Source: Utricularia gibba
Taxonomy: Eukaryota; Streptophyta; Magnoliopsida; Lamiales; Lentibulariaceae
NCBI GenBank assembly: GCA_002189035.1
Contig: NEEC01000009.1
Coordinates: forward strand, 682,001 to 746,000
Length of the DNA: 64,000 nt
Direction: 5' to 3'
Below, in pieces: positions 128-62,974 of this stretch. A program made the translations under genes and the position numbers. How positions within the stretch are numbered: the stretch's first letter is position 1; each line of letters opens with the position of its first letter. The notes below the pieces were generated by a model that had not been told where the DNA came from, made no database searches, and saw only the letters and a program-made list of their open reading frames with translations.

Positions 128-1620
128 ATGGTTGCGGAGGAAGACGACGTCGCCGTCGTGGTGGTTGTCCGTGAGTACAACGAGAAAAACGACCGGGAGG
201 CGGTTGTGGATGCCGAGTCCCGCTGCGAGGCCGGCGGCTTCGGGGGAAACTCTCTCTGTACACCCATCTCCTGGGTGACCCCTCTGCCGCGTCCGTCATT
301 CTCCCGCGTATCTCATGCTCGTAAGTCCTGCTATTTCCTTCTTCTGCAATTCTCCGGTGGTGGACTGGAATGGAAGAAGAATTTTTATTTTTTTCGTATT
401 TCGCAGGTTGCGGAGATGGAGGTTGTCGGTGGGGGAGAGGATAAACAGAGGAAGGAGATAGTGGGCATGATCAGGGGTTGCTTAAAAACCGTAACTCTAA
501 ATGGGAAGTCGCCGGAGAGCGGTAAACAAGGCGGCGTTCAACGAACTCCGGCCACCAAAGTCGGCTACATTTTGGGCCTCCGCGTTTCTCCATCTCATCG
601 GTAAACACGTATCTGTCTGTGTTGTTATTCTCCTCCATCCCATCCAGTAATAATTTAAAGAGTGCTTGCTGGCTGATTTACCCACTCACTCCCTCGTAGT
701 CGTGGGGACAGGACAAAAACAGATCCCCTGAAATTTCCATTCTTTTTCCAATTTCAATTTTTGTCTCCAGGAGAATGGGAATCGGGCTGAAGCTTGTTCG
801 CAGAATGGAGCTCTGGTTTCGGGAAAACGGCGCCCACTTCTCCTACATCGCCACTGAAAGCGATAACATACCGTCCCTGAAACTCTTCACCACAAGATGC
901 GGCTACTCCAAGTTCCGAACCCCTTCGATTCTCGTGCAGCCGGTCTTCGCCCACCGGATTAAACCCAATAAGAAGGTAGCCGTCATCCGTCTCCCCCAGA
1001 GCGACGCCGTTTTCCTCTACCGGAGCCGTTTCTCCACCGTCGAGTTCTTCCCCGCCGACATCGACGCGGTGCTGAATAACAAGCTCAGTCTCGGGACCTT
1101 CGTAGCCGTGCCCATTGGATCCTACGATCAGAATTCCTGGCCCGGGGCTGCCGCGTTCCTGGCGGCGCCGCCGGAATCATGGGCGGTGCTGAGCGTGTGG
1201 AACTGTAAAGACGTATTCCGACTGGAAGTTCGCGGAGCGTCGCGCCTGCAGAAAGCGGTGGCGAAGACGACGAGGGTAATGGACCGGGCGTTCCCTTGGC
1301 TGCATCTCCCCTCCATACCGAAGCTATTCCGTCCGTTTGGGCTTCATTTCCTCTACGGGATCGGAGGCGAAGGCCCGAGCATGAACACCTTCGTCAGAGG
1401 GCTTTGCAGGCTCGCCCACAATCTGGCCCGCGACCACGGCTGCGGTGTGGTGGCCACCGAAGTAGCCCAGCGAGACCCCCTGCGGTCCGGGATCCCGCAC
1501 TGGGAAATCCTCTCCTGCGACCAGGACGTCTGGTGCATCAAGAGCCTCGCCGAAGGCTTCAAAGACTGGGTGAAATCGCCTCCGGGAACCTCCATTTTTG
1601 TTGATCCTCGGCAAGTATGA
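128..1620 (+). CDS. HLS1-like: HOOKLESS1-like GNAT N-acetyltransferase, two apparent frameshifts in exon 1
   Basis: Putative GNAT-family N-acetyltransferase of the HOOKLESS1 group, which in Arabidopsis controls apical hook formation and differential growth. Exons 128-320, 407-600 and 771-1620; 412 aa once corrected, close to the roughly 400 aa of HLS1. The N-terminus (VVREYNEKND, RCEAGG), the acetyl-CoA loop LGLRVSPSHRR split by intron 2, NNKLSLGTFVAVP, SWAVLSVWNCKD, GLHFLYGIGGEGP, HNLA and the C-terminal SIFVDPR are family signatures. Exon 1 does not read through: it is in one frame to the G-run at 242-246, in a second to the C-run at 279-282 (GKLSLYTHLLGDP), and in a third after it (RHSPAYLML, leading into VAEM of exon 2). 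One extra base in each run restores the family sequence and the splice phase. The start is the ATG beginning MVAEEDD. The family is certain; whether the shifts are real is not. Confidence 0.88.
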
Positions 1621-2290
1621 TCCCCAATCCATGTGGCTCTTCAAATTTCCCTGATTTTAATTTAGGTGAAGACGCCTTTTCAATTTCTAATATTCAGATA
1701 ATCCATAATTAAATTAATTCATTATTTTACCGCAAAGAGGATCCTTGACGTGCCGGCGCGGCATCCAATTTAGAACAGTTCACATGGACGGCATCCATTT
1801 AAATACGTTATCCGTACGATATTATTATATTTCGATATTCAATATTTCTTATTTTACGTTTTCGTTTGACGAAAAAAAGTTGTATAATATTAGTAAATTA
1901 CTTATATTTAAATATATTATTTATTCCGTTTGTAATCAATATAATATATCGTTACTTGTCTCACGATGTTATACCTATATGCAAAAAATGTAAATGAGGC
2001 GTAAAAATTAATATTATTTCGATAATTAAAATGAAGAAATTAGGAGGGTAGGGTGGTCCTTTCAAGCCGGCACTACTAACTATGATTAGTTATTCCCGAA
2101 TAAAGCTAATCAGAATTGGAAACCGAAAGCTTGTCTCCCCTTCCATCATGAAACTGGAGAATCTTCACTCTGACAGATGATTGTTGGTCTCCTTCTCTGT
2201 CTCTCTCGCTCGCATTCAGTGTCCCGACGGGCGTCGGAGGAGTTTAGTATCGGAATCTAAGTGACGGATGAAGCACCGTGGCATCACGGC
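1621..2290. other. Intergenic spacer, AT-rich
   Basis: Spacer between the HLS1-like gene and the formin. The middle (about 1800-2040) is very AT-rich. A short near-repeat, GGCATCCA followed by ATTTA, occurs at about 1762 and 1790. The last 130 bases are rich in CT and probably hold the formin promoter and leader. I see no gene. Confidence 0.5.
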
Positions 2291-4972
2291 ATGTCAGCAA
2301 GACAAATGAAAAGTGGAGTCCTGGGTGAGAGTTTGGTAATCTCTCTTTTGATTCTGTCATTCGCCATTGTTTCCGGCAAGGAGAATGACCGGAGAATTCT
2401 GCACCAGCCGTTGTTCCCATCCACTGCACCCGAACCACCGCTGCCTAGCATGGAGCTGCCTCAGGAAGACCAGCCCTTCTCCCATGAGCTCCCATTTGGG
2501 CCGTTAGTGGATCAGACCCAGGATACGCTTCCGCCGGCGCCGTTGCTTGGAGCGATGGGAACTCCGGCTTCTCCTCCCCCGTCCAGTTCGATTAGAAAAG
2601 TGACGGTGGCGGCGGCATTGACTGTTGTGACGTTGGGCCTACTGTCGGCGGTGGGGTTCTGTTTTTTAAAGCAATGTGGGAATCAGCAGGATGAGTCGCG
2701 GAAGCTTGTCGGTGGGGATTCGATGGCTACCGACGTGGAATCGAGAATGCCGCCTCCGGCAACGTCGTTTCTTTACGTCGGGATGGTGGAGCCTTCCGTT
2801 GGAAGTCTGATTGATGAAGCCAGTGGCGCTAATGGATCACCGTATCGGAAATTGAATTCGGAGAAAGTGTTGTTCGATCGTTATCGGCCGAGCCCAGAGC
2901 TTCAGCCCCTACCGCCATTGCCGAATCTCCCGCCCATGTACTCTCCCGACGACGATAGAAATGCACACACTCCTCAATCCTCCTCTTTCAGCGACGGGTC
3001 TCCAGTTTCGCGTCAAAATCGCATTCATCGATCCAAAGGATCTCCCCCGAAATCCCGACTTTCGTTATCTTCCCTTGATACGGAGCCTGTGATTCGCTCA
3101 ATCAAGCGATCTCAGCCTCCTTCTCCTCCTCCATCGCCGGCACTGGCGATTGCTTCTTCATTTGCGCCGCCGGTACCCAGTAAAAGAGCAGGGCCAAAAT
3201 TCCCGCCACCTCCTCCTCCGCCCGACATTTCGCGTCTCCGATCAATACTTTCCTCCCATCAAGAGAAACCCAGCATCCCAACTCCACCCCCACCGCCGCC
3301 GAACATAGAAAATATGGGGTCTGTGGAAGAAATTGCAAAATCACCGTTTTCAGAGACGGTAACGAGATCTGTGTTAAAAAGTATCACTCCCCAAGAGCTT
3401 GTAACTTCCATTTCACGTCGCGATGATGAATTCAGAGATGATACAGATGGATCGAAGGCGAAACTAAAGCCCTTGCACTGGGATACAGTGCGAGCCACCT
3501 CTGAACGAGCCACCGTTTGGGACCAGATGCAGTCAAGCTCTTTTCAGTGAGTGAAATTGGTCATGGAACTCAAATTTTCCTAATCCTCAGTAACGAATCA
3601 AATTTTTCATCCCGCAGATTGAACGAGAACGCCATGGAATCGCTTTTTGGGTGCAGTTCATCTAGTAAAGACAGTGGACGAAAGCCTGTCATGCCGTTGA
3701 CGCAGCAGGGGAGCCGAGTTTTGGACCCCAAGAAATCCCAAAACATCGCAATTTTGCTACGTGCACTGAATGTCACAGTTGAGGAAGTAAAGGAAGCACT
3801 TTTGGATGGTATGGTTTATACCATCTGAAAAAACTGCATTCCTAGTGACTGCTGGGGAGTTCAATGCTGAAACCTGTTGCAGGCAATTTGGAGGGGTTGG
3901 GAACAGAACTGCTGGAGACATTAGTTAAGATGGCACCAACGAAGGAGGAAGAGATCAAACTCAAAAGCTACAATGGCGACATCTCGAAGCTGGCATCAGC
4001 CGAGAGATTCCTCAAGGAGATTCTAGACGTCCCATTCGCTTTCAGAAGAGTCGAGGCATTGCTGTATCGAGCTAATTTTGAAAACGAGATCGTTTACTTG
4101 TCGAAGTCGTTTCAGACATTGGAGGTACTACTTGCTAGACATGTTGGGATCTATTCTTGCCAGAAAGTTCCAAGTTTCTTGCTTTCTGTACTCAGGAAGC
4201 GAGTGAAGGACTGAGGAACTGCCCCCTTTTTCTTAAACTTCTGGAAGCAGTTTTAAGAACAGGAAACAGGATGAACGATGGGACAAACAGAGGTCATGCC
4301 AGAGCTTTCAAGTTGGATGCATTGTTGAAGTTAGTGGACGTCAAGGGAAAAGATGGTAAGACAACTCTGCTTCATTTCGTCGTTCAAGAGATCATCCGGT
4401 CCGAAGGAGCCGAATCGGAAACACCCCACGAGTCACAGAAGCCAGATTTCAAGCTCAAAGAGCATGAACTCAGGAAAAAGGGATTGCAAATCGTTTCAGG
4501 TCTCAGCAAAGAGCTTGAAAATGTCAAGAAAGCTGCTGGTATCGATCCTGATGTTCTCAAAAGCTACCTCAGCAAGCTCGAGACGGAGCTTGAGAGAGTA
4601 AAATCTGTCATCCAGTGCGGAAAACCATCACCACCCGGAGGTGAATTCTTTGACTCCATGAACGTTTTCATCAAGCAAGCTGTCGAGGAAATAAGCAGAA
4701 TCAAGCTTCAGGAGAAGAAAGCTCTGTCTATGGTTAAAGAAGTGACGGAGTACTTCCATGGCGATGCAGCAGGAGAAGAGGCACATCCTTTCAGAATTTT
4801 CATGGTCGTTCGAGATTTCCTGTCTGTGCTAGACATCGTTTGCAAGGAGATAGGCAAGCAGCAACTGGAAAAACCTTTCTTGGTGCGGGAAGATCATTCA
4901 GAATGGAACCAACAGCAGCAGCGCAGTACATATCATAAGAACATGTGTTCTTTTGGCATCGATTTACAGTAG
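2291..4972 (+). CDS. Class I formin (FH-like) with signal peptide, TM segment, FH1 and FH2
   Basis: Plant type I formin, a membrane-anchored actin nucleator acting at the plasma membrane/cell wall interface. Four exons (2291-3546, 3618-3808, 3883-4124, 4196-4972) give 821 aa. In order: hydrophobic signal peptide (about 1-30), extracellular Pro-rich stretch, one transmembrane helix (about 105-128, [15 protein letters not shown]) followed by cytosolic linker, FH1 with runs of six to seven prolines (about 270-340), then FH2 from [11 protein letters not shown] (about 390) through [21 protein letters not shown] and [15 protein letters not shown]. All junctions keep phase. I start at the ATG of MSARQMK because it leads straight into the signal peptide; an upstream in-frame extension has only a GTG. 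The gene looks intact. The exact member of the FH family cannot be assigned. Confidence 0.93.
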
Positions 4973-5267
4973 TACAAGTTCATAGAGAAGAGGAAGCAGT
5001 CTCCTGGAAATGCAATGATGCACAACAACAACGAGACGTTCCTATAGAAAAGGGCAAAAAAGGAAACTAAAATATAGAAATTATAAAATAATAAAAAAGG
5101 GAAGAATAAAAAATCAATAATTAAGGAATTTCCAACGGTGCGCGTAAAAACTGTTAATTGCCGGGGAAAAAGGTGCCGTTCAATTTATAATCTCCGCTTT
5201 GAGTTCCGGCAACAACACATCATCCTCTTCCGACTGACGGCGCGTAGGTTCACGGTTTCGAATCGAG

Positions 5268-8597: not shown

Positions 8598-10274
8598 TCA
8601 AGGAACGATCATGTCATCCACATCCAGCCAGTCGCTTGATTCCTTGCTGTCTGAGAGCTTGTCCTTGGACGACCGTGAGGAGGAGCTCTTACCAAGCTGA
8701 ACCCAATCGCGGGTGTCTTTATCATCAGAGCTGTAGTTTGGTTTCCTGAAGCTGCTCTGTGCAGCTTCATCATCATCATCTTCTTCTTCAAGATCACTGA
8801 AGGTGACATCATCATCATCATTGTGGACGGGGGTGGGGTGGGGGTGGGGGTGGTCTTTGAAACCGTGACACTGCTTTCGGTTGCCTCATCCCTTAGCCAA
8901 CCATCTACATCGTCTTCATCTTCCTCCACGGCAAGTTTCAGGGGATTATACGTTTGTAAATTGATTCCAGATTTGCTTGTGTTTGTAGCAGTGCTGGTAG
9001 CCAGCGTTTCAGCTTTCTTTGCGGAATGCCCTTGCAGTTCAGAAGCAACATCAATATCATGGTTGGATGATTTTTCAAGGGAGGCAGAGCTCCATTGTTG
9101 GTGTTGGGGGGTTATGCTCTCATCCTCGTGTTCCGCAGATTCATCCTGCTTTGTTGCGTCACTATTCTTTGAATCATTTGCCAGCAAAGCTCTAGCTTCC
9201 ATGACCTGCAGAGAGCAGTCGCCTCAGACGCAGTGGAAGGTTAAAAAACTAGCTCAACAAAATGCAACATTCATAACAATGAGTGGTTATGTGGGACAGA
9301 CAGGAAGGAAAGAAACCTGTGGTGTGGACAGGAGTAAGGCATCCTCTGTACGTAGCCTAGTGTGAACAATCACAAAGTAAATCTTCCAGAAGCGATCATC
9401 ACTCATGTATCGAGGGCACAGCCTCATTCTCAAAGCAGCCAAATTTGGAACATGTCGCTCTACAGCCAACGCATGCTCTTGTTGCTCGTCAGACATATCA
9501 AAATCTAACATTTCATGCTACTCGTGTTAGAAAACACTCCAACATACTTTGAGTAGCTAAACACAATGTTTCAAACATCCTCCAACTTCATAGCAAAAGC
9601 TTTCAGAATCAATCTAATTAAATGCACTCCTAAACACGAGATCAAGCAGATTTTTAAGTAGAAAACTAGTTAGCAGAAGAGGATAACTACAACAGGAATA
9701 GGAAGCGCACCATCCTCACCTCCATCATTAAGCGGTAACGGGAAATCAAGCCAAGTTTCCGGGTGAGTAGAGATGTCAGAAACAAACGCCACAACTTCCT
9801 GAGTAACGCCCACCGCCCCACCTGCCGGAGACTTCAAGTCTTTACCTTTATTCTCATTTTCGTCATCCACTTCCAACTGAAGAAGGCTAGACGCCATTTT
9901 TGTAATCTCAGCGACGTTAATGTTATTCGAAATTCGAGAAATTTCGCTCCTGAACCTCCCCCAATCTCCGCGAAATCTCCCCGGATCCCTAAAGCTGGAC
10001 CTTTATCCGATCCATCCACATTAGGCTCCGATTCATGCTCGGACTGCGCAGGAGGCGCAAGGAAAGTTGTGAAGCCGCGGAATTGGCGGGTTAGGGTTCT
10101 GCTCAGCTCTGAGAGATCATCCTTAACACCGCGAGATGGCGAAATCGGCGGCGACTCACCATCTTCTTTAGATTCAGTACCTTCCTTCCGCGTAGACTCC
10201 GATTCCCTACCGTCGCCGTCGTTTTCTTCGTTGAACTTGAGAGAATTCGCGATGGACCGAGCTAACCATGACAT
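8598..10274 (-). CDS. BSD domain-containing protein, two apparent frameshifts
   Basis: Plant BSD-domain protein of the type starting MSWLARSIANSL; the molecular role is not established. Exons (minus) 10274-9720, 9504-9317 and 9205-8598; 450 aa corrected. After an acidic, Ser-rich N-terminal part come GVTQEVVAFVSDISTHPETWLDFPL and then the BSD domain (FDMSDEQQEHAL, LRMRLCPRYMSDDRFWKIYFV). The C-terminus is acidic and ends in DWLDVDDMIVP, typical of the family. Two breaks interrupt the frame. One is at the C-run 9958-9962, between GDFAEIGG and RFRSEISRISNN. The other is inside a run of ACCCCC repeats (minus strand), where 8835-8838 has four Gs on the plus strand while its neighbours have five. 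Restoring one base in each gives a coding length divisible by three and returns VHNDDDDVTFSDLEEE. Confidence 0.85.
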
Positions 10275-17400: not shown

Positions 17401-18066
17401 ATCTGAAAAGTGAGTTGTGCTCTTTCGGATGAGCTTTCTGTGTGCCCTCACTTTCCTGTTATTTTTTGTTGATCTGTGCTGTTGGGTTCCTTACTTTATC
17501 TGGTATCTGTTGTTCAACGTATGCCCTTATGTTTCTATTGTAGTTTAAATTAACATATGTCGACGTTAATTCCATCCCACCTCCATGCAGGTTGAAGGCT
17601 CATTTCAAAGATAACCCAAGAGACTTGGGTAAGCGCTTACTAGAATCATGTAGCCGTTACCAGCTCCCCTAATTATTTACTCTTATAATTGTTTCCCATC
17701 CTTCCACAGATCTACTGAAACGTGACAAAGTTTTGGGTAAAAAGCCCCAGCTTCTCACCTCCAAGATATTCCTCAGTACTTACTGGACCCTGCCACACAA
17801 GAGGTTACCAAGATTTTGAAGGTCGCCAGAGCTGCCATGGGAACCACCACTCACGCTAACAGAGGCTTCAAAAGAAAGTTTAGAAGAAGCAGAGGTCCCC
17901 TCAAGACATCCTCCGAGGTGAACTCTTTTCTTCCTCACATGTTTCTCCCTCAAAGTGCCTCCTGCTATGTGAAATGGCCTTCCGTTATCTAATCCCCTCC
18001 GGTTTAACGTTGGTGCTTCATCAGGGATCAAAAAGGGTACGAAGAAAACGGAAAGAAACTGAGTAG
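14439..18066 (+). CDS. RH16: DEAD-box ATP-dependent RNA helicase, RH16/DDX56 (DBP9) type, one apparent frameshift
   Basis: Nucleolar RNA helicase of the DDX56/DBP9 group, expected to act in 60S ribosome assembly. Fifteen exons from 14439 to 18066; 591 aa corrected. N-terminal basic tail, Q motif ([14 protein letters not shown]...PTPIQ), motif I AKTGSGKT, Ia PTRELC, Ib STPACI, motif II DEAD split by an intron (ILDE/ADLL), motif III SAT, helicase C domain with [10 protein letters not shown], motif V region [19 protein letters not shown] and motif [10 protein letters not shown], then a basic C-terminus. Exon 3 must end at a weak GTTGGT donor (15107) to keep frame. In exon 14 the reading frame breaks at the C-run 17745-17748; one extra C restores [19 protein letters not shown] and RAAMG, and brings the last exon into phase. 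Motif V reads AADD where most relatives have ATDD. Confidence 0.9.
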
Positions 18067-22035: not shown

Positions 22036-24713
22036 ATGCTCAAGAAATTTTGGAAACCCTTAGCTTTAAGTGTTTCCTCGTCGACAGAATCCAGGTTAGT
22101 CCCTTTTCATTCTCAACAACTTCGTGCATATATTTCCAGCACAAAAGGCCTGGAAAGGAGAAATCTCGATCAAAGCGACGATGGGTTGTTCAGAGACCCT
22201 GATGATCCCCGAGGCTGTTAGTCGTACAGCCAAGAATGCGCCCCGATACCCGTTTGAGAGCGATGCTCGAGGAAGCTTTAAATCTCGCAAATTCTCTGGA
22301 GCAACAGCGGGATGGGTATTACGCGACTGAGTTTTCCGAAAAGGAAAAGCCACCTCATCTTGTTGTTCAGAATCCAATGTTCAGGTCACCCAGAGCCGGT
22401 TAGTGATCATGCAGTAATTTTAGATGCTGAAGTGCATTGTATAGTCTAATCTTCGATTTTTTGGTGATTCTGATGTTACAGATACATTTTTTGGAGCTGG
22501 AACTTTGGATACTGTAAAGTGTTACTTGAACGAATTAGAAACAAAGGTTTGTTGATCTTGGTGTTTGAGATTTTCTGGGAATGTTTGATTTTAAACCACG
22601 TCTGTAATCTGCTCAACAGAACGAGGTGGATGCCGTTTACGTCAATGCTATTCTCTCCGGTGTTCAACAAAGAAATCTGGAGGCGAGTTGACTGTTCATG
22701 TACTTAGTATTGAATGTTGTAGGGCTATTTCTGATCCTTGTTTTTCATGTTTCCATCAGCGTATTTGGAAGAAGCCTGTTCTGGACCGCGTTGGTGTAAT
22801 AATAGAGATTTTCAATGCTCATGCACAGACAAAGGAGGCTAAACTGCAGGTAAATCTACTTTTCCCAGTGAAAAAAGATGTTCAAGGTTGATTGGACGCT
22901 CTTGTGTTGATTTACAGGCTGAGTTAGCAGCTCTTATGTACAAACGAAGCAGGCTTGTTCGTGTGCATGGTACCGATGGACGCTACACATTTGGAGGAGT
23001 TGCGGAGGCCGAAGTTGTTAGTGCAAGGGGGTGAGCATCTATTTCACTTGAAATGCTTCCAGGCGCTTGCGAACAGCTTGATGCACTAACTCCCTTCAGC
23101 GTGGCTCTTCAGTTGGCTATTGGTGCACATTACCTATTCATGATGCAGCCTTTTTGTTGGATGATTATTTGCAGGAGAGGAAGTGGAGGGCGTGGATTCA
23201 TTAGTGGTGCTGGAGAAACTGAACTTCAGCTTCAAAGACGACGGTCTGTTTACCCCTGTGATCCCCATTTTCTACTTCGGGAAACAGTTCTTAGAAATGT
23301 TAAGTCTGTTCTATTAGAATCTCCGAACGGAGGAAGAAGCTTCTATCTGAGATCCAAGAAGTTCGAAGAACTAGAGCTGTGCAGCGTGCTGCTCGAAAGA
23401 GGCAGGGTAGTTTATCAGGTGAAGAAGTTGCTACTGTTGCCATCGTTGGTTATACAAATGCAGTAAGTAGCTGCCCTTATGCGCATACCTTTACCTTGCA
23501 CTAGATTGTTTCCTTCATCCCTTCTCATGAGTTTTCAGGGAAAGTCCAGCTTAGTCAGTGCTCTCTCAAACAACTATCTGTACTGCGATGACAGGTGACA
23601 CCTGATTCCTATAACCACTATCACATAACTTTTTCCGGCAGTGATCATACAAGGAAAAACTCCTGCCAGATTGTTTGCAACCGTGGATCCGAAGTTGAGC
23701 AGTGTTATCTTGCCATCCGGGTACCACCATGTTAAATTTTGGTTATATTTGCTGCAAGTGTGATACACATAAAGTTGGTTAAGAGCATAAATGCATGCTG
23801 CAATTTAGAAGGAAAGTGCTGCTTAGCGACACGGTGGGGTTTATATCAGATTTGCCTGTTCAGGTTAGTGGAAGTGCGGAGCACTCATCCTATATTTGTT
23901 GAGGCTTATGCTTGTGATTCTCTTGATGGTATTAGGATTCATTTTGCAGCTCGTGGAAGCATTTCATGCTACCTTGGAAGAGGTTCTTGAAGCTGACCTC
24001 CTTGTGGTATGAACTGCCATCTTCTTCCATCCTTTTTGCTGCTCCGGTGACAATGATCGGACCTCTTCGCAGCATGTGCTCGACTCGAGTGCCAAGAATC
24101 TCGACGAACACCGTCAAACTGTTCTGCAAGTTCTTGCGAAGCTCGGTGTATCAGATGAGAAGCTCGACAACATGATAGAAGTCTGGAACAAGGTAACACC
24201 AGAGCTTGAATCTTCGTCACATGCTGTTTTGGGTAGCAATTTCTTCTACTGGAGATACTGTCACAGATTGATCTTGAAGATGAGCAAGATGACATTAGCA
24301 GCTTCTCAGTAGAAGAGGATGCTGAACCTTTGTCAGACCTTGAAAATGAAGATGGATTCAATATTAAAGCAGAGGAGGAGGCATCAGGGGACCTCGCAGC
24401 CTACACTTCTGATGAGTGGCTATTGTCGGAAGATGATGAAGAATCATCTTGGTTCGACTACAGCAATGGATCCATCGGTTCTGCTGACACAGTGACCCAA
24501 AATCAAGACCCTGCAGGGAATTCTTACAGCGGCTCACCCCAGTCTACGTGCCATGTTAAAACTTCTGCCATAACTGGCGTTGGCTTGCAAGAATTGCTTG
24601 AGCTGATTGACAAGAAGCTGGAAAAACCAAGCCACATTGTAGAAAGGAGCATATATGACCACAAGTGGAGGCCACCCCGTGGGGAAGGCAACCTGATAGC
24701 AGTGGAATCATAA
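22036..24713 (+). CDS. HflX-type GTP-binding protein, organellar, one apparent frameshift
   Basis: HflX-family GTPase, a ribosome-associated translational GTPase; plant copies act in organelles. Thirteen exons, 22036 to 24713; 564 aa corrected. N-terminal region (PPRLLVVQPRMRPDT, VQNPMF), the HflX domain (NEVDAVYVNAILSGVQQRNLE, KKPVLDRVGVIIEIFNAHAQTKEAKLQAEL, GGRGFISGAGETELQLQRR), coiled linker ISERRKKLLSEIQEVRRTRA, G1 GYTNAGKSS (about 300), G3 DTVGFISDLP (about 345), G4 NKID (about 416), then a long acidic insert and TSAITGVGLQELLELI. In exon 1 the frame breaks at the C-run 22207-22210; one more C gives DDPPRLLVVQP. Intron 3 uses a GC donor (GAG/GCGAGT at 22683). The start is the first ATG in frame (MLKKFWK); the leader up to STKGLERR is probably a transit peptide. 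Confidence 0.92.
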
Positions 24714-30994: not shown

Positions 30995-32147
30995 ATGGAG
31001 TTGGATCCCATCAAAGATGCGTTTGATCGTGTGACAAAAAAACAGAAACTTGCATCCTCAAAATGTCAAGAAATACTTCAAAAGATTGAAGAGGAAATAG
31101 CACAAGTCATGTCAACAATAAAGTCAGAGGAGGATCCTGCATCTGATCATAAATCGGTGCTCAGTGGTCTGAATGTAAGATTGAAAACACTGGATCTGGT
31201 TAGTCAGCTTGAAGGGGCCCAAAAAGAGTTGAATGTTGCGGCCAGCAAGTACGCAAAGCTCCTTGAGAAATCCTTCAATCCTGATATTTCGAAAGCATAC
31301 CGTAATGTGGACTTTGATGCCCACCTAGTGAACCAAATCATTGCAAACCACTTCTACAGAGAGGGTCAATTTGACCTTGGTGATTGCTTTATTGATGAGG
31401 CTGGTGAACCTGAGGCGTTGGCTCGGAAGTCGCCCTTTTTGGAACTATTTCAAATTATGGAAGCCATGAGATCTCGGGACCTGGAGCCTGCTATCAACTG
31501 GGCCACAAGGCATCGTCAGCAGTTGATGGAGAATGATTCAAACATTGAACTGAAACTTCACCGCTTACAGTTTGTGGAAATCTTGCAGAACAAGAGTAGA
31601 GAAGAGGCATTGAAGTATGCAAGATCAGTTTTTGCTCCGTTTGCTGAGAAACACATGTCTGAAATCCAAAAGCTTATGGCTTGTCTGTTATGGGCCGGCA
31701 AGCTTGATTCATCTCCATACGCTGAATTGCTGTCCTCTGTACACTGGGATAAACTTTCTGAGGAGCTCAAGCGGCAATTCTGCAATCTCATGGGACAATC
31801 TTATGATTCTCCCCTGAGTGTGACGGTTGCAGCCGGTTTTCAGGCATTGCCAGTTCTCCTGAAGCTGATGAACGTTATGTCAGGAAAGAAACAGGAATGG
31901 CAGAACATGAAACAATTTCCTGTCCCCATGGATTTGAGTACCGAGTTCCAGTTCCATTCCATATTCGTGTGCCCGTTAGCCGTGATCAAGCAACCGAGGA
32001 AAACCCCCCATGTTACTGCCTTGTGGACATGCTTTGTGCAAACAATCCATCACCAAGCTGTCCAAAAACAACAACACTCGACCTTTCAAGTGCCCCTACT
32101 GCCCCTCCGAAGTCGAAGCAGGTCAGTGCAAGCAGTTATTTTTCTGA
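30995..32147 (+). CDS. RMD5: RMD5 homologue (RMND5/GID2-like E3 ligase subunit), two apparent frameshifts
   Basis: Subunit of the GID/CTLH ubiquitin ligase complex. One exon; 384 aa corrected. N-terminal coiled part (MELDPIKDAFDRVTKKQK), LisH motif near VNQIIANHFYREGQFDLGDCF (about 112-140), CTLH/CRA region (FLELFQIMEAMRSRDLEPAI, LKLHRLQFVEIL, ALKYARSVFAPF, MACLLWAGKL), then [23 protein letters not shown] and the degenerate RING (MLLPCGHALCKQSI, FKCPYCPSEVEAGQCKQLFF). The RING is broken twice: at the C-run 31972-31974 (three Cs; four needed) and at 32004-32009 (six Cs; seven needed). With both restored the length is a multiple of three and the gene ends at the expected TGA (32145-32147). Without them the RING would be lost. 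Confidence 0.9.
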
Positions 32148-42293: not shown

Positions 42294-43278
42294 TCGGGAG
42301 ATTTCGATGATACAAGAACCCCTGTTCTTCTTCATCAGAGTTTATATGCCTTAGTGTGTGATCTCCATTCGGATGACTATCGTGTTTCACAGTTCACTTT
42401 ATAGATGTTGGAGAAGAAGGAGTAAATTCCATATTCATTTGATGTGTTTTCATCCCCAAACACATCAATCGCGCTGCGAACCTTGCGTTACAAACAATGA
42501 TGCATTGAGAGACACCAGTTTCGCTTTTCTGGATACCCCTTTCAACTTTTGCTTCATCTGGGCATCTTTTTCAGAATTATCAGCACACACTTTACATCAT
42601 CCCTGAAAATCAGGTGCTTTTTGCAGTACTTTGGCTGGGGTTCTCTCGTTCGTGAAATGATCGATGATGTGATCGCAAAATAGGGTCATTGTGAATCTCC
42701 CAGCAACTTCAGCATCAGCTTCCGCCACCGCCACCGCCTTTCCTTTTCCCGAAACCCCGGCACGAAAGACGAAAAACAGTCCCAAGTTGATCGTGAAATG
42801 AAAAAAACGGTGGTCTCATTACATGTGCTTTACGATTCCCGGCGGCCGGAGAGTGAGAAACCGGCAGCTGCTCCGCATTTGAAGAAGGGATTAGGAGTAA
42901 ATACATTATAGGAAACTAATCCCAATATTTAAATAATAAAATATTTTATAAATTTATAATTTAATAATAGTACCTTACATTTTAAAAATAATAAAATGAT
43001 TTAGAGCGATCTAGGATAATAAAACGACGTGGTATAATGACTGAAATTTTGCGAAATGGGCCTGGCCCAGAGTTCAGGTCCACTTTGTACCCGTACCGTG
43101 ATCACACTCTTTGTACCCCCTCTCTTCTGGAGTTGTACGCAGAAATATAAGCTTCCATTCATTTCATTTTCCGCCATCGTTTAGTTCCTGTCGAGAATTC
43201 AAAATTTGGATTGGCTTCAAGCTAAACCCATCTATCTCCATTTAGCCGTAGAATTGGCCGCCGTTGGGAGATTTCCCG
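42294..43278. other. Spacer upstream of the HIT4-like locus
   Basis: CYSTM 3' UTR, then 42600-42890 of higher GC that is open on the minus strand but lacks an ATG start or recognisable domain, then AT-rich DNA (42900-43010) and a probable HIT4-like promoter with TGGGCCTGGCCC at about 43056. Confidence 0.45.
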
Positions 43279-45116
43279 ATGAAGAAAGGTGCCAAGGGAA
43301 AGGTGCGCAACACCGGGTGAGGTCTGGGAAGGAGCCGGAGGAATCGAAAGATGTCAACTGTCTTGCCCCGACGGAGGAGAATAACACGCCTAGCGAAATG
43401 GAGGCCACTACAGGCCCCGTAAGAGAACTAAACTTTCAGAGGTTGAACCAGCGGAGAAGCATAAGACGGAGCGTACCAAAAAAGAGGTTGCACGCAAGAA
43501 AAGTAGAGTTTCCAAGGCCGAGATTGAGACGGAATGTTTTCAGGAGAAGCAAAATTTGGTAAGTATTTTCATTTAGTATATTTCAACAATTGTGTTGAAA
43601 ACGGTGTTGGGCAGCGTAGTGCGCGCATTTCCTTCTGATTCTTGTCTTCATTTTACCGCTCTGGTTAGAATGGGGAATTTCGGGTAGAAGGATTAAAAAA
43701 ATGGCAGATATTCATCTTAGGTTGCACTCAAAGGAGGCATAATTTTTATTTTTGCAGCGTGATGGGATCAGTGCTGACAGAAAACGGTTGATGATTATAT
43801 GCTTTGGATCATTGCGTTTGACATTATGCTTTTTGGCTGACTGCTTTTGTGTGAACTGTTTGATATAATAAAATTTTTACTTGGATGTTAGAATTTTATA
43901 TTTAAAGTGTAGTGGTTTATTACCGCTGATCGTTGAGGCTAAATTTAGTACCACCTGTTGATTGTCGCAGGGCTGGTGTAAAGCATTTAAAGGTTGACCG
44001 CGTAAAGAAACTTGAATATGGCATACAATGTGAGTAAAAGTCTTAATTGGTTTCTTTTATTTGATGTCTTGTCTCGCATGCTCTTGTTTGCTATTCTTTC
44101 TATTGATGGTAGCCCATCTAATTTGGTAATCTTGCTGAATATAAGTATTTTTCATTGAGTTGGTATTTGAAAACAGGCGTGGATGTCTTGTTCTATGGTA
44201 TTATATGATGTAAACGTCCCATTTGTCCATATATCATGTCTTGCAGACTTTTACCACCCGCTACAAGAAGATGAACTCGAGCAGAGCACAGAAGTTGAAA
44301 TTTTATTTCCCTTGGATCGTCAGCCAGTAAGATCGTGCACGAGGTGCTTGTGTCCCTGTACTAAGTTTTTGCCCACGTGGGTGGTTTTTCCCGTTTTATA
44401 ACATCGGCATCTCATCATGATGGTTACAATTGCAAACTGAGTGCGTTTTTTTTTCCTACAGCTTGTTACCTCTTTTGATTGCCTCAGTGTGTGTTCAAGA
44501 ATCCTTTTTTCTGAATTTGCATCTGAACATATTATTTTAAATTGGAATATATTCAGTTGTTCGTTGATCAACTCATTGAAGATGAATCACTGCCAGCAGA
44601 AAGAACCCTTCAAGGTAACATAACAAGGCTTCCGTTGGCACAATCTACCTAGTGTTATTTTTCCATTCTCCTGAGGTTAATTGTTATGGTGGTTCTATTA
44701 GGATTTTGTCAAGCAAAAGGTTCGTGAAGCTAAGCAAGCTAATAATGAGGTAGGCCAATGGAACACAAAAGTCTGGTTTCTAGTGTCTACATTTAAACAT
44801 ACCTTCCACATCCTGATCTTCCCATCCATCTGCTTATAGGCCAGAGAGGCACGTAAAAAGGCACTAGAGCAAATGAGTCCAGAAACAAAGGCCGCTTATG
44901 AGAACATGCGACTCTACAAATTTTACCCAGTTAAAACTCCTGACACTCCTGATTTATCCGGAAAAAAAGGTGAATGCTCTCACCTTTACACCTAAAGCTG
45001 TGAATTTTATCTTATGCCGCTTGGCTACATTTCATCTGTCCGTCAACTGCCCAGCTCGTTCGTTGCAGTGGTCCTTCATCAACAGATACTACGGGATTGC
45101 TCATCAGGTCCTGTGA
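43279..45116 (+). pseudogene. HIT4-like: HEAT-INTOLERANT 4-like gene with missing exons and frame breaks
   Basis: Parts of a HIT4 homologue, a nuclear protein needed in Arabidopsis for heat-induced chromatin decondensation. Recognisable pieces: 43279-43558 (MKKGAKGKGAQH... and EVARKKSRVSKAEIE), 43971-44029 (AGVKHLKVDRVKKLEYGIQ), 44247-44326 (YFYHPLQEDELEQSTEVEIL), 44557-44614 (FVDQLIEDESLP), 44702-44749 (DFVKQKVREAKQANN), 44840-44969 (ARKKALEQMSPETKAAYENM, KFYPVKTPDTPDLSG) and 45055-45116 (FINRYYGIAHQVL). The large central block (LWKEVFP to the Cys-rich repeat in HIT4) is absent: only 412 bp separate the first two pieces and their phases do not match. A second short gap follows LDRQP. In addition the frame breaks at 43296-43298, 43415-43418 and 44593-44594, each one G or C short. 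Probably a broken copy. Confidence 0.75.
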
Positions 45117-46506: not shown

Positions 46507-49500
46507 ATGGCTAGTGATGATCCCAAATTCAGGGGTCCTTCGACCGGGTTGGCTATTGTGTTGAATGGAGACGCCAGGAGAGAGGGGTCTGGTAAAGCTC
46601 AGTTGGTTGCAAGTTGCAATGCTTTCTGTGAACAGTCTGTGGAACGCGCAATTGAGCATGTTTTTAATCTACCTTATAAGACGATCAAACCTCTTACTTG
46701 CCCATTGACAGTGCTTGTGTTCGTTCAGTGATAAGGAACAAATTTCTAGGGCAGCTCCTGGACTTGACAATGCCTATGGCTAGGGAAAGGGCTGGAGTAT
46801 CCACGGGTCATGACGCGTCACAATCTGAGTATGTTAAGCTTGAAGAATCTAGCATATTTGGTGACATTCGAATTGTTAAAAAACCTTTTGTGGTGGAAAC
46901 TCATGCTTCATTCAGTAGTGTAAGGGCCAATGCCTGTGTATGGAGGGGGAAGTGGATGTATGAAGTAGTTCTTGAGACATCAGGAGTACAGCAGCTTGGT
47001 TGGGCTACTGCTGCATGTCTCTTCACTGATCATATGGGCGTTGGCGATTCTGATGAATCTTACTCGTACGATGGGAAAAGAGTCAGTAAATGGAATATAG
47101 AAACTGAACCTTATGGTCAGCCTTGGGTTGCCGGTGATGTGATTGGGTGTTGCATAGATCTGGATTCCGGTGAGATATCATTTTACAGGAACGGCATCTC
47201 CCTTGGGGTGGCCTTTAGTGGAATTCGAAAGATGGTTCCTGGATTGGGATATTATCCTGCAATTTCACTTTCTCAAGGTGAACGTTGTCAGTGGAATTTT
47301 GGGGCTATTCCTTTTGCCTATCCAATCGAGGGATACCTTCCAATTCAATCACCTCCTTCGTCACTAGCCCTTGCTAATGGGCTCATTGATTGCTTTCGCA
47401 GGCTGTTACAAATGTGGCGACCCACCAATGCTGAAATTGATAGTGTAGAAACTATTATTAAGCTGAAGCGATTTGAGTCTGTTGAGGATCTTTTCTCTCC
47501 TATTCTTGATGCCATTTGTGAAGAGTTATGCTATATCATCAATTTAAAAAATGAGAGTGCAGCATACATAGGGCGTGGCCTGTTTTGTTCTTTCATCATG
47601 GAAACCTTCAGAAGTCATCCCCCACATGACTACTCAACGCTGGATCGAATAATTGATGCCTTCATCAAATTTCCTGAGTCAAGAATACTGTTTGAACATC
47701 TTCTTGGGGCACTGTCAGCTGCATGTAAAAGCTCACCTTTGGTTCTTACTGAGTGTCCTTATTCTGGGTCATACAGTTATCTTGCTGTAGCATGCCACAT
47801 TCTAAGGAGGAATGACCTCATGATGCTCTGGTGGAAGTCTTCAGATTTTGAGTTCATGCTTGAGGGATTTCTTTCAAGAAAAAGTCCAAACGAGTATGAT
47901 CTTCGCTGTTTGATTCCTTCCGTTTGGTGGCCTGGAGCACATGAGGATGCAACCTCGGAGCATAGCATGCTGCTGACTACATCAGCTTTATCTGATGCTG
48001 TGAATAAGGTAGGCTGCACATAGTCATCCTCTGCTGGGAAACTTGGTGAAATTGAAAATTTACAAAAGAAATCTTTGTTTGACACGCTGATTCTATAGCC
48101 TTTTGTAGCTTAATCCTATTCTAACGCGAAATAAATTTTCATCTGTTTTTCTAATTGCATCTCTCGTATTTTTCTTTAGATAGAGGAAAAGCAAAGGGAA
48201 CTTTGTCACTTGGTAATGCAATTTGTCCCTCCTGTTGCGCCACCTCAATTCCCTGGTTCAGTTTTTAGGACGTTTCTGCAGAATATTTTGTTGAAGAACA
48301 GGGGTGCTGATAGGAACGTACCACCCCCTGGAGTCTCTAGTAACTCAGTTCTTGTTTCCTTGTTTTCCATTATTCTCCATTTTCTATCTGAAGGCTTTGA
48401 TGTATATGGTTGGAGCAAGAGATCTGGACCAGAGTCCAGAGCTCATTTAGGTCTCCTACACAGGGGTGGTGAACAATGTTTTCCTGCCTCCCTATTTCTG
48501 AAGAATGATCCTCATCGAGTTGACATACCCAGGATTGGAGGATCTTACTTCCATTTATCAAAGTGTTGTCCTGTAATAGCTAATCAAGAAGAAGAGATGA
48601 TCCAATGGGAAGAAGGCTGCATGGATGATGAGGAAACCAGAGTAACCCATTTGAGCAGGCAAAAGCCATGCTGCTGTTTTAGTTATAATTCGGATACACT
48701 GCAAAAATCTAAAGATTGTATGAGATATTCATTGAAGGGGCATCTTGGAAGTGGTGGCTCTGTTCCAGAGAGATCTAGTAATGTAACACGAGGGTGTAGC
48801 TCCAGCAACCTCAGTGAAGAGATAGCTGATAAACCCAGCACTAGTCACCGTACAGATTCAGATTTTTCTTTTCGTCCAGTGCACCAAATCAGGATTTTGC
48901 CAACAGTGAACACCCTCCCTTCAGCTATTCTTAACGAGGAAGAACTTTTAGATGCAATGCTTTTGCTTTACCACCTGGGTGTCGCTCCCAAGTTTAAGCA
49001 GGTGTGCTGGGTTTTTGCTATTTTCTGCTCTTTCTACGTGCACTTGCAGCAATGTTACAGCTGGGTTTTTATAATCTGATTCTCATATCATTTCCAGCAA
49101 TGTCACAGCTCTAATGTAAAAGATTGCATTTTGGTCTGTTTCTGTTAAGAAAAAGTCCATCCCACCTAACTCATAGATCTGTTGCCCTGTAATAAGAGTT
49201 TTCACTGTGATAGTTCAGCCAGTTTCTGGAGTAAGACTTATTTTGTAATTTTGATTTCTAAATTAGGTGTCATCTTTCATGTACCGTTATTCTAGCTCTA
49301 TGTCACTTCTGGAAGAAACAGATCGACATATCAGAGAGGGAATCTATGGTGACAAAATTAAACAGTTGAAAGAGGCTCGCCGAGTTTATCGTGAAGAAGT
49401 TATGGATTGTATCAGACATTCTGCTTGGTAATCTCAAAGCCACCTTGTTAATGTTTATTCTGAATGCGGCATCCTTATTCATATTAGAGCCTGTTTTGTG

Positions 49501-57458: not shown

Positions 57459-59132
57459 ATGGAGTTGGCGACTAAGGATTCGCGGTGGTGGGTGTTTATG
57501 CTCCCTGCGTTTCTTGGATCCAAGACACTTGTGGACGAGTACGTGGTTTTGTCAGTGTTTCTGGCATTTCTCTCCGTCGCGATTCTCACCTGGTTTTACT
57601 CCCCTGGCGGCGGCGCCTGGAAGCACCGCAGGAACAGTGCAGGCCCAGCACAGATTCCTGGGCCAAGGGGGATTCCGGTTTTCGGCAGTTTGTTCAGTCT
57701 GAGCCGTGGCTTGGCTCATCGTACTCTGGGCAGAATGGCAGAGACAATGAACGCAAAGCAGTTGATGGCGTTCAGCATTGGGGCAACGCCGGCGGTGGTG
57801 ACTTCCGACCCGCAAATCGCCAAGGAGATTCTGATGTCGCAGCATTTCGCAGATAGGCCGATTAAGCAATCGGCGCGTAGTTTGATGTTCACTCGAGCGA
57901 TGGGCTTCGCTCCCAACGGTACTTATTGGCGTCTTCTCCGCCGTATCGCCGCGTCCCATCTCTTCGCCCCGCGGCAAATCGCCACCCAGGAATGCGGTCG
58001 TTTGTATGATTGCGCTGTGATGGTTAAGGGGATTTCGGGGGATATGGCCCGTGACGGCGTTGTCTCCGTGAGGAAGCATTTACAGGCGGCGTCCCTGAAT
58101 AATATAATGGGCAGCGTTTTTGGAAAGAGGTACGACGCTGCGGCGGAGGGAGAGGAGCTTAGACAACTTAAGGAAATGGTGAGGGAAGGATTCGAGTTGC
58201 TCGGAGCTTTCAATTGGTCGGATTTTCTGCCGTGGATGGCGTACGTTTACGACGCATATCGTATTGTCAGCCGCTGCGAGAAACTCGTTGTTCGTGTGAG
58301 GAAATTGGTGAAGGGCATTATCGAAGAGCACAGAGCGAGGGAGAAGAACGCATCGGGATCCCAGGATTTTGTGGATATCTTACTTTCCTTGGACGGCGAT
58401 GAGAAGCTCGGAGAAAATGACATGATCGCCGTTTTATGGGTAAGTTTTGTCGTCAAGTGCGTGCATTTGCTCTGTTTCGAACTTAAGGGGATTTGTTTTC
58501 TGCAGGAAATGATTTTCAGAGGAACAGATACAACAGCTTTACTGACAGAATGGGTTATGGCGGAATTAATTCTGCACCCTGAGATTCAATCCAAACTTAG
58601 GCAAGAACTCGACGCCGCCGTCGACAGCAAACCTTCACTAACCGCCGCAGACCTCGCGTCGCTGCCGTATCTTCAAGCGGTGGTGAAAGAAACTCTCCGT
58701 GTGCATCCTCCAGGCCCGCTTCTCTCATGGGCTCGTCTCTCCACCGCCGACGTTCATCTCAGCAACGGAATGGTCGTCCCCGCCGCCACAACCGCCATGG
58801 TCAACATGTGGTCAATCACGCACGACCCCGAGTTCTGGGAAAACCCACTCCAGTTCAAGCCGGAGAGATTCGTACCGAGCATGGGCGGCGAGGATATCGA
58901 CGTCCGCGGCGGCGATCTCCGACTCGCCCCGTTCGGCGCCGGGCGCCGCGTTTGCCCTGGGAAAAATCTCGGCATGGTCACAGTTACGCTGTGGGTGGCG
59001 GAGCTCGTCCGCCACTTCGAATGGATCGAGGACTCCAAGAATCCGGTTGATTTGACGGAGTTGCTGAAACTGTCGTGCGAGATGAAATGCCCGCTCTCCG
59101 CCGTGGCGCTCGATCGGAAACTTGCTTACTAG
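57459..59132 (+). CDS. CYP78A: Cytochrome P450 of the CYP78A family (KLUH-like)
   Basis: ER-anchored P450 monooxygenase; CYP78A members (KLU and relatives) set organ and seed size, with an unknown mobile product. Two exons (57459-58439, 58506-59132) encode 535 aa. N-terminal membrane anchor (about 25-52), proline hinge [14 protein letters not shown]-helix [16 protein letters not shown]-helix [13 protein letters not shown], ExxR in KETLR, PERF motif FKPERFVPS and heme loop [14 protein letters not shown] with the Cys ligand. The single-intron layout at the I-helix is the family norm. The start is the ATG of MELATKD; an upstream in-frame GTG was ignored. The 66-nt intron is a multiple of three without a stop, so intron retention would add 22 residues in frame. 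The gene looks intact. Confidence 0.96.
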
Positions 59133-59798
59133 ACGCCAGTCATGTTGGAGTCTTTCCATTTTCCAATAATTCCCTTACGGCTTAGAGTTGCTATAAGAGG
59201 GTAGTCGTGTCTACTTATCTAGCGTTTTTTTGGTGCGTCTCTTCTTCTTAATATATTAAATAATTTAATTTATCTTTAAATAAAATTAATATTCTCTCAA
59301 AACACACTTTTTTTGTCAATATATTTTTTTAAATAAACCTACATATATCTAATTATATTTACAAAATTTGATAAAAAAAATATTCTATATAATTTTTTAA
59401 AGCATGTAATGAATTAATTATTTATTTCATGTTAATATAGCTCATCAAAAACCTTAATTTCTCGTTTGCTAAATAACATACAACTTGTCTAAAACGTTTC
59501 ATTTCATTGTGTACACTATTTTTTTCATTTTACATTCTTTTTTTTAAAATCAGGGAAAATATTTATCAGTTTTTAATTAACAAAATGATGTGGATAATTC
59601 ATTAAAAAACAAATTATCTACAAAAAGTAAATATTATATATATTTTTTAAATCAGCGGTTGTCTAAAATAAAACTAAATAATAAAATAAGAATAACAATT
59701 TAGGTAATAAATTGATTTCCTGGAAAAAAAAAAGGGAAAATGGGATGATTTTAAATTAGGCGATTCATTGCTTTTGATGCGTGTGGCAACTGGGAACG
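59133..59798. other. AT-rich spacer
   Basis: CYP78A 3' UTR followed by very AT-rich DNA (59230-59700). I see no gene. Confidence 0.5.
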
Positions 59799-60938
59799 AT
59801 GGAGTCTTCGGTGGGTGGTATCTCCGCTGAAGCAACGGGGATTGATGGCGGCTGCTTGTCGCCGGATGCAACAAGTCCTCCGGGGAACGGAATTTTTGTT
59901 TCCAGCTCCTGTTTAGGGCTGCCGATCATCCCCAATCTTCCAGATGATGTTTCGATCCAAATTCTAGCGCGAGTCTCCCGCTTTCTGTACCCAATAATCT
60001 CCCTAGTTTCTAAGTCATGGCGTTCGGCTTTGAATTCTCCGGAGATTTTCAGGGAAAGAGCTTTTCTCGGCACGTGGGAATCATCAATTTTCCTTTGTAT
60101 TCGTAAAGATTCTTGCTTCAGTTGGTATTCCGTAAAGCGGATGGCCATTCCTCTCCCTCCTATTCCTCATCACCTCGTTGGATCATCGGTGGTGTCTGTT
60201 GGACCTAAATTTTTTGTCATCGGTGGATCAATCAGGGATAATCCCAGTAACATTACTTGTGTGTTTGATTGCAGATTTAATCGATGGGAATTGGGGCCTA
60301 AAATGCGTGTTTGCCGTGAATTCTCTGCCGCAGGGGAATATAACGGAAACATACTTGTTATAGGCGGTTGTAATGTGAATAATTTGGCAGGAATAATGAA
60401 CTGGGCCGAGGTTATTGATCCTAAACAAGGGATAACAACTGGTGTCCCTTGTCCAGTTGAGGTGAAGCACAAGTGGATGCACGCAAGTGCAATGATGGGA
60501 AGTAAGTTCTATGCGATGGCAGATAGGGGTGGTGTAGTTTATGACGTGGTGAATGGGGAATGGTCAAATGTGCCCAAAAGACTGGATCTTGGGTGGAGAG
60601 GTAGAGCTGCTATGGTGGGCAATGTACTGTATTGTTATGACTACTTGGGAAAGATTAAGGGATATGATAGCCAGAGGGATGTATGGTTGGAGTTGCGCGG
60701 GTTGGAAAAGAGTTTGCCAAGGTTCTTGTGCAGTGCCACAATGGCTAACATGGGTGGAAGGTTGTGCGTAGTTTGGGAAGAGAAGAAAAATGGGAAGGAG
60801 TTGGATATATTATGCGCTGAAATTGAAGTAAGGACTGATGGTGATGGTGGTTTGCGTGGGACACTACTGAGGCTTGATGTTATTCTCGTGTTACCGAAAC
60901 CCGTTGCAATTTCCCATTGTTTAGGAGTGACATTTTGA
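59799..60938 (+). CDS. F-box/kelch-repeat protein
   Basis: Substrate adaptor of an SCF ubiquitin ligase. Single exon, 379 aa. A Gly/Ser-rich N-terminus is followed by the F-box (about 45-90: IPNLPDDVSIQILARVSRFLY, SLVSKSWRSALNSPE), then ERAFLGTWESSIFLCI and kelch-type blades (FVIGGSIRDNPSN, CRFNRWELGPKM, NGNILVIGGCN, HASAMMGSKFYAMADRGGVV, YDVVNGEW, GKIKGYDSQRDVWLELRGL). The layout fits the small F-box/kelch group related to SKIP/At1g-type proteins, but I do not assign a member. The start is the ATG of MESSVGG; an upstream GTG extension was rejected. No damage seen. Confidence 0.92.
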   Translation: MESSVGGISAEATGIDGGCLSPDATSPPGNGIFVSSSCLGLPIIPNLPDDVSIQILARVSRFLYPIISLVSKSWRSALNSPEIFRERAFLGTWESSIFLCIRKDSCFSWYSVKRMAIPLPPIPHHLVGSSVVSVGPKFFVIGGSIRDNPSNITCVFDCRFNRWELGPKMRVCREFSAAGEYNGNILVIGGCNVNNLAGIMNWAEVIDPKQGITTGVPCPVEVKHKWMHASAMMGSKFYAMADRGGVVYDVVNGEWSNVPKRLDLGWRGRAAMVGNVLYCYDYLGKIKGYDSQRDVWLELRGLEKSLPRFLCSATMANMGGRLCVVWEEKKNGKELDILCAEIEVRTDGDGGLRGTLLRLDVILVLPKPVAISHCLGVTF

Positions 60939-61219
60939 AAGTGAGTCTGAGGATTTAAGACCTGCTAAATCATCAAGCTTCGCTTAAGAATCGGTTCTTT
61001 TGACTGTTGCGTGCACTTCATTTGGCAATTCTAATAGAGATAAAGAAATAACATGTGCAAGGAACATCATTACAGTGACTGTTTGTTGGTACGCAAGATC
61101 TCAAACTTTGTGAAGGAAGCCGCGGTTGTTTATTGTGACAGCCGAATCTTTCCGGCAGTTTAAGAAACTGTGACAGAAAGAACTGACAAATGAAGGTATT
61201 GGGCAATACTTTGTTCCTT

Positions 61220-62974
61220 CTACCTTCTCAGGAAGTTCTCTGTTTGTAGCAGAACCTGCGGATGCGTTCATAAATGAGTCATAAATCAGCGTATTCCCTA
61301 CTAAAGAAAAAAGTTGCTTCGAAACGGTGTGGAAAAGGTAAGAAACAAACCTCAAGCGCGATCGCATGTTCTGTGATTTTGCAGACATCCTTTACTCCAA
61401 GTTTTGCTGCAATATCTGTCACAAGAGAAGCATGTTCGCATGCCAACTATTAATCTAGATGTTACCCTTTATGAGAGGATAGTGGTTGGAAACTGGAAGA
61501 TAGAGAGAGATCACACGTTGTAGAGAAACTTTCACATCTGCATTGGCATATGATTCACCCCTCTCTTCAAACAGTGCTGATAATTTCTTCATGGTCTGTA
61601 ACAAATGTACACTTAGTTATGAAGTTTGTTGTACTTGTCTCTTTTAGAAATTCAGAGTAGACATCATACCTCAGTGTACACTTCTCCAGATTGCTGATGC
61701 AAAAGGGGCCGGGAATGTGTCCCAACTGCAGTGATCCTTCGAGCTAAAGCTTCCAACGGTACATCTAGCCAAATGCTGATGCCCTTCCCCATGTGCTTCC
61801 TGTTTCACTTAAAAAAAACGCTGACACTGGAACAGCCTTTTCGTGGAGAGGTGAACTATGGGCGAAAGTGTTGGCATACCAATTGACTGGTCGAATCACC
61901 GCACCCCCACCAGTGGAAACAACCAAATTATGCATCAAAGACAACTTCTGCAGCACCTGGGTCTGATGAAAAAGCAGACAAGATAGAGATTGTCAGTGAG
62001 AACTGCACTAGAAAAGGATCAAACTTTGTGATTGTCCATGCCTATGAGTTTCTGTATAAAGTTCTATTGGACTATCTGTTTTTCCGATTTTTTGTTTGTC
62101 GCCAGGAATTTTATATTCTATGGGCATTTCATGTTCATCCTACTGACCTCATAGTCTCTGAAGAAGCTCTCACCATATGATTTAAAGATTTCAGCAACTG
62201 AATTTCCCCAGCAGCCTCCTCTATTAGTGTGTCACTGAGACATTCTCCAAAAGCGCAAGGGCTTAATTTTATGTTTATGTCTCACATTCACAAGATGTAA
62301 GAGTGATATTTCCAGCTAACCAGTCACAAAATGAGTAACCAAGAGACTCTGACAAAACTTTTCCCACAGTTGTTTTCCCAGATCCCATCATCCCTGTTGT
62401 GGATAAAAAAAGAAAAGATATGTATCCAACAAATAAAGAGAAAACTAATATAAAAAAGGAGCCTATGATTGTACTCACCAACAAGATACAGACATCTTCC
62501 ATTTAAATATTCTTCAACTTCCTCAGATTTACGCAGTAATTGCATCTAAAATGAATATCAAGTTAGCTACAAGAGATTTCTGGTTCAGAGAATACTTTGC
62601 ATATGAGAAAGATGTTGAATGTTTTAATACTTTTATGATCTTTGTTTCATCAGAAAGCGCCGGAGAGCAATCTGGTTTCAAGACTGAAGCTATAAAGAGA
62701 AAACCAATGTAACTTTAGTGCCAGAAGCATCTCATGGATTTTTTTCCCATATTTGGTGCTAAAATATAAGTTCACCAGGAGCGCTTTCTGAAGAACATGA
62801 TATATGCACCAACGGAGGTTCATATCTCCCCCTTCTTCTGCTAGTATTCAAAAAAACACTTAAACTGTGCTTATGCTGCACATGAAAACTGGAAAACTGC
62901 ACAGAAACGCCATGTTTTGTTTCCAAAATCCTCGATGTATGCGGCCAAGTACAGTGGAGATATCCCACATCCAT
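61220..62974 (-). CDS. SK: Shikimate kinase, chloroplastic, one apparent frameshift
   Basis: Phosphorylates shikimate in the plastid shikimate pathway to aromatic amino acids. Ten exons on minus (62974-62776, 62683-62631, 62545-62479, 62393-62321, 62234-62148, 61962-61880, 61799-61670, 61595-61517, 61415-61351, 61255-61220); 290 aa corrected. Residues 1 to about 80 form a Ser/His-rich transit peptide; then [27 protein letters not shown] (P-loop), [16 protein letters not shown] (shikimate-binding Asp), [51 protein letters not shown], the lid SRPLL, and [15 protein letters not shown]. The fifth exon breaks at the C-run 62206-62209 (plus strand); one more base turns EAAGEIQLL into [12 protein letters not shown] and makes the total a multiple of three. 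Head-to-head with the DRG-type gene. Confidence 0.93.

What the first reader, a model, noticed from the sequence alone, without database searches (positions are those of the whole stretch)
128..62974. Thirteen single-base losses, all in G or C runs, break nine genes
Breaks are at 242-246, 279-282, 8835-8838, 9958-9962, 17745-17748, 22207-22210, 31972-31974, 32004-32009, 43296-43298, 43415-43418, 44593-44594, 46701-46703 and 62206-62209. Each needs exactly one more G/C; none is in an A/T run although exons contain many. With them, coding lengths of HLS1-like, BSD, RH16, HflX, RMD5, RKP and shikimate kinase become multiples of three and conserved motifs reappear. One-sided, base-specific errors across unrelated genes suggest a consensus artefact, not selection or decay.
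Basis: partly seen in the sequence, partly recalled or inferred. Interest (0 to 1): 0.75.

Follow-up and report, generated by a model that had tools for sequence, protein, structure and literature searches.

The report
Assembly errors mimic broken bladderwort genes
The apparent breaks in these plant genes are almost certainly a known long-read sequencing fault that drops one base from runs of G or C, found here across the whole assembly, so most of the genes are probably intact.

Summary
The breaks are real in the printed sequence. Twelve of the thirteen listed sites are one-base (-1) losses of reading frame in conserved exons of a ~100 Mb, 516-contig plant assembly, by size and contiguity almost certainly the PacBio assembly of Utricularia gibba. 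Ten lie in seven genes that look otherwise sound. Corrections: 44593 is a 5-bp difference from an intact homeolog, not a one-base loss; that gene also carries an extra A, so this copy (and its breaks at 43296 and 43415) may be truly decaying. At 9958 and 17745 the lost base could be an A beside the G/C run. I count eight genes, not nine. The artefact reading holds well beyond the window: in five other gene families 34 of 35 non-intron frame breaks miss one base, 27 clearly in G/C runs and none clearly in A/T; G/C runs near breaks are enriched (p<1e-5), A/T runs are not. The homeolog of one broken gene is intact, while the homeolog of an intact window gene is broken in C runs. Published PacBio HGAP/Quiver consensus shows the same error. 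Nothing biologically new; it is a warning about gene-loss claims from this assembly. Raw reads were not available.

The parts
242..246 (+). G run, one base short; first break in HLS1-like acetyltransferase gene (gene 128-1620)
   Evidence: frames change 101->100; intact paralogues on C413 and C1 read straight through
279..282 (+). C run, one base short; second break in the HLS1-like gene
   Evidence: frames change 100->102; intact paralogue on C413
8835..8838 (-). one of three adjacent G runs (C on the gene's strand), one base short, BSD-domain gene
   Evidence: minus-strand frame change; exact run not resolvable
9958..9962 (-). C run (G on the gene's strand), one base short, BSD-domain gene; missing base could also be the A beside the run
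   Evidence: frame change; BSD Pfam hit downstream; intact paralogue L102 has AA there
17745..17748 (+). C run beside an A run, one base short, RH16-like DEAD-box helicase C-terminus; base class ambiguous
22207..22210 (+). C run, one base short, HflX-like GTPase
31972..31974 (+). C run, one base short, RMD5/RMND5-like E3 ligase subunit
   Evidence: homeolog on C402 has CCCC in frame; RMND5A chain match ends here
32004..32009 (+). C run, one base short, same RMD5-like gene
   Evidence: homeolog has CCCACCC in frame; RMND5A match resumes; silent-dominated changes in the resumed frame
43296..43298 (+). -1 break in or near this G run, in a gene copy that also bears other lesions
   Evidence: homeolog exon on C402 intact; may be true decay
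43415..43418 (+). -1 break at this C run, same gene copy
   Evidence: homeolog exon intact; may be true decay
44593..44594 (+). not a one-base loss: exon 5 bp shorter than in the homeolog, between CAGA repeats
   Evidence: 58 nt against 63 nt
46701..46703 (+). C run, one base short, RKP-like E3 ubiquitin ligase
   Evidence: RKP_N profile 2-68 before and 65-137 after, in two frames
62206..62209 (-). C run (G on the gene's strand), one base short, shikimate kinase
   Evidence: frame change; SKI profile 1-22 and 32-51 on separate pieces; AtSK2 match
2261..4972 (+). formin (FH2) gene, long first exon open in the window; its C402 homeolog has two C-run breaks there

Best explanation
The breaks are consensus errors of a PacBio-only assembly. 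The reads or the consensus step under-count runs of identical G or C, so the printed sequence loses one base at some of them, more often at longer runs, throughout the genome. Every such loss inside an exon looks like a -1 frameshift although the plant's gene is intact. Shown: the breaks, their one-sided direction, their association with G/C runs, their spread over the assembly and their independent occurrence in homeologous copies. Inferred: that the organism is Utricularia gibba, that the reads were PacBio RS II polished with Quiver only, and that reads would show longer runs.
For: Of 35 non-intron frame breaks from GRAS, HSP70, KCS, BAHD and UDPGT families, 34 miss one base (p about 1e-9 against an even split), 27 are clearly in G/C runs, none clearly in A/T. 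Adding one base raised the GRAS profile score at the GRAS junctions and removing one did not; around profile-chosen points G/C runs are longer than at random positions (mean 3.92 against 2.26, p<1e-5) while A/T runs are not (2.23 against 2.45). G/C run lengths over 302 kb fall off at 7 (5:238, 6:50, 7:3, 8-10:0) while A/T runs decline smoothly. Several GRAS paralogues break at the same run-prone R-P-G-G-P-P codons; open ones have interrupted runs there. The RMD5 homeolog is intact and changes in the resumed frames are almost all silent. The window's formin is open while its homeolog is broken twice in C runs. Redundant contig C316 lacks bases at ten places against C412 and never has extra ones, with one SNP. 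PMC4832174: P6-C4, HGAP, Quiver, 262x, 205 remaining indels nearly all in G or C runs; PMC4888979: 561 single-base run deletions after three Quiver rounds. U. gibba was assembled with HGAP from 88x SMRT reads (PMC5793159).
Against: No reads, transcripts or short-read assembly of this accession were available. The density (roughly one per few kb of coding sequence) is much higher than in the published examples, which would need an incomplete polish or a mismatched model, not shown. Two redundant contigs, C241 and C304, share the same HSP70 break, which fits a systematic error but also a real variant. C376/C413 and C377/C321 are identical, so show nothing either way. One GRAS junction (L074) is +1 or -2. 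One window gene has lesions of other kinds. The base class of the 27 junctions was assigned by eye.
Confidence: 0.94

Rival explanations
1. The genes are truly decaying after whole-genome duplication: real frameshift mutations were fixed because a homeolog or relaxed selection covers for them.
For: U. gibba has been through two recent whole-genome duplications (PMC8333044) and a syntenic homeologous region exists on C402. The copy at 43257-45105 has a 5-bp loss and an extra A besides its two -1 breaks.
Against: True decay gives insertions, deletions of many lengths, A/T-run events and in-frame stops; elsewhere the spectrum is one-sided. The HLS1-like, BSD, RH16, HflX, RKP and shikimate kinase exons have no match in the syntenic C402 stretch, so no backup there. 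RMD5 keeps silent-dominated change in every resumed frame.
Confidence: 0.03
2. Real germline mutation bias: this plant loses G/C bases from runs at a high rate, for example through oxidative damage to guanine.
For: The G/C specificity and genome-wide spread would also follow; a reactive-oxygen hypothesis for bladderwort evolution is recalled from memory only.
Against: About one frameshift per few kb of conserved exon, including HSP70 and GRAS regulators, is hard to reconcile with a viable plant; the sequence beyond the breaks keeps protein-level constraint.
Confidence: 0.02
3. Programmed -1 frameshifting or transcript editing restores the proteins.
For: Breaks recur at one codon motif in several GRAS paralogues.
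Against: The sites share only run composition; paralogues with interrupted runs are unbroken at the same codons; the mechanism would have to act across unrelated genes.
Confidence: 0.01

Closest known systems
Residual indels of PacBio P6-C4 HGAP/Quiver assemblies (Streptomyces albus SM254, PMC4832174)
   Same: single-base indels left after Quiver, nearly all in G or C homopolymers, needing short-read polishing
   Different: there 205 in 7.2 Mb after 262x coverage; here far denser, and in a plant nuclear genome where reads were not checked
Single-base run deletions in PacBio consensus (Enterococcus faecium ATCC 700221, PMC4888979)
   Same: one-base deletions in homopolymers after HGAP and repeated Quiver
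   Different: base class not stated there; confirmed with Illumina reads there, not here
Gene-fragmenting errors in long-read assemblies (Kastor, PMC12007338, which cites Watson and Warr)
   Same: indel errors create false frameshifts and false pseudogenes
   Different: mostly nanopore examples, where A/T runs dominate

Membership tests
PacBio Quiver-type G/C homopolymer deletion artefact | errors are deletions, not insertions | tested here: met
   34 of 35 non-intron junctions miss one base
PacBio Quiver-type G/C homopolymer deletion artefact | errors concentrate in G or C runs, not A/T runs | tested here: met
   27 clear G/C, 0 clear A/T, 3 ambiguous, rest unresolved; enrichment test
PacBio Quiver-type G/C homopolymer deletion artefact | occurs genome-wide, independent of gene function | tested here: met
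   five families on many contigs
PacBio Quiver-type G/C homopolymer deletion artefact | frequency rises with run length | tested here: inconclusive
   needed length 7: about five broken, none in 17 intact GRAS ORFs; length 4: two broken, 87 intact; points the right way but small numbers, and intact genes are selected to be unbroken
PacBio Quiver-type G/C homopolymer deletion artefact | the assembly was made from PacBio reads with HGAP/Quiver | tested here: inconclusive
PacBio Quiver-type G/C homopolymer deletion artefact | accurate reads show a longer run | not testable with these tools
   no reads held
True pseudogene after duplication | mixed lesions (stops, insertions, multi-base deletions) | tested here: not met
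   not seen in the RMD5 comparison; met only for the copy at 43257-45105

The most novel reading that the evidence does not exclude
A part of the G/C-run losses is real and the plant truly carries a strong germline bias toward losing G/C from runs, tolerated through duplicate genes.
Probability: 0.02. Interest if true: 0.7.

Novelty: not a real feature. Interest (0 to 1): 0.22.

Why it matters
If true, many gene models of this assembly are falsely split or truncated, so counts of lost genes, pseudogenes and short proteins in U. gibba, a model for genome shrinkage, are biased unless checked against transcripts. Genes with runs of Pro and Gly codons (GRAS factors, formins) seem most exposed. A short-read polish would fix it.

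Tried and rejected
P450 and kinase families were set aside: only the best candidates were scored and conserved introns mimic breaks. Four junctions (L095-L098) were dropped as likely introns. L074, L077, L078, L087 and L088 were left unresolved for base. The published DCL3 truncation of U. gibba was considered as a possible victim of the artefact and dropped, because the authors confirmed it by 5' RACE (PMC8333044). Pfam found nothing for the short HflX piece and the N-terminal HLS1 pieces. A first GRAS motif scan on one strand missed most loci and was redone. No structure prediction was run: folds do not bear on the question.

Full report
The window is bases 682001-746000 of contig C505 in an unnamed 100.09 Mb, 516-contig assembly. 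Its size, contiguity and recent whole-genome duplication fit the PacBio assembly of Utricularia gibba (HGAP, 88x SMRT coverage, contig N50 3.4 Mb; PMC5793159; two recent duplications, PMC8333044). The name is an inference.

The thirteen runs are present as printed. Three-frame reading around each site shows that conserved protein sequence continues across twelve of them in a frame that requires one more base. Outside evidence backs several: the RKP_N profile is covered 2-68 before and 65-137 after 46701; RMND5A residues 68-337 and 348-391 match the pieces before 31972 and after 32004; shikimate kinase pieces match SKI 1-22 and 32-51 and AtSK2; HLS1-like and BSD paralogues elsewhere in the genome are unbroken.

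A homeologous region lies on C402 at about 1,205,000-1,285,000. It holds an intact RMD5 copy: where the window has CCC it has CCCC, and where the window has CCCCCC it has CCCACCC. Between and after the two breaks, 14 codons differ silently and at most two by replacement, so the protein frame stayed under selection in both copies. The C402 formin copy has two C-run frame losses of its own where the window copy is open.

The thirteenth site fails. At 44593 the window exon is 58 nt and the homeologous exon 63 nt; the difference is 5 bp between two CAGA repeats, and one added base does not restore the frame. The same gene copy has seven As near 44960 where the homeolog's frame needs one fewer. Such mixed lesions suggest a truly decaying copy, so its two -1 breaks (43296, 43415) cannot be assigned. 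At 9958 and 17745 a lost A beside the run is as good a reading as a lost G/C.

Adjacent fragments with a frame change and no room for an intron were fetched and read. Leaving out likely introns, 34 of 35 miss one base; 27 are clearly in G/C runs, three are a C run beside AA, the rest unresolved, none clearly A/T. The base class was assigned by eye. A check with a profile built from intact GRAS copies gave the same direction, and around the profile-chosen points G/C runs were longer than at random positions (p<1e-5) while A/T runs were not. Several GRAS copies break at the R-P-G-G-P-P codons; copies with interrupted runs there are open. Over 302 kb, G/C runs of 7-10 are nearly absent while A/T runs of those lengths are common.

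Redundant contigs gave mixed information: C316 against C412 shows ten losses, all in the small contig, and one SNP; two other pairs are identical; C241 and C304 share one HSP70 break.

The literature describes the same fault: 205 indels, nearly all in G or C homopolymers, after HGAP and Quiver at 262x (PMC4832174), and 561 single-base run deletions after three Quiver rounds (PMC4888979). The density here is higher than in those examples, which I cannot explain without the reads.

Conclusion: an ordinary, already described consensus artefact, shown here to run through the assembly, with one gene in the window that may be truly decaying.

Noticed in passing
window 43257-45105 against L025: A gene copy with a 5-bp deletion between CAGA repeats and an extra A, while its C402 homeolog is intact: probably a true decaying duplicate, function not identified.
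   Followed up: partly
window 36503 and 41328; L023 7658; L035 4003; L048 1008; L051 580: G/C runs of 11-15 bases occur although runs of 7-10 are almost absent: an odd two-humped length distribution.
   Followed up: no
C316/C412, C241/C304, C376/C413, C377/C321, C251/C244: Small contigs (20-31 kb where the length is known) duplicate parts of large ones, from identical to 99.5%: redundant or haplotype contigs.
   Followed up: partly
L098 (C4:1155460-1155600): A GRAS gene seems to hold a very short intron, well under 80 bases, at the run-prone motif.
   Followed up: no
L074 (C414:3444800-3444910): The one GRAS frame break that is +1 or -2 rather than -1.
   Followed up: partly
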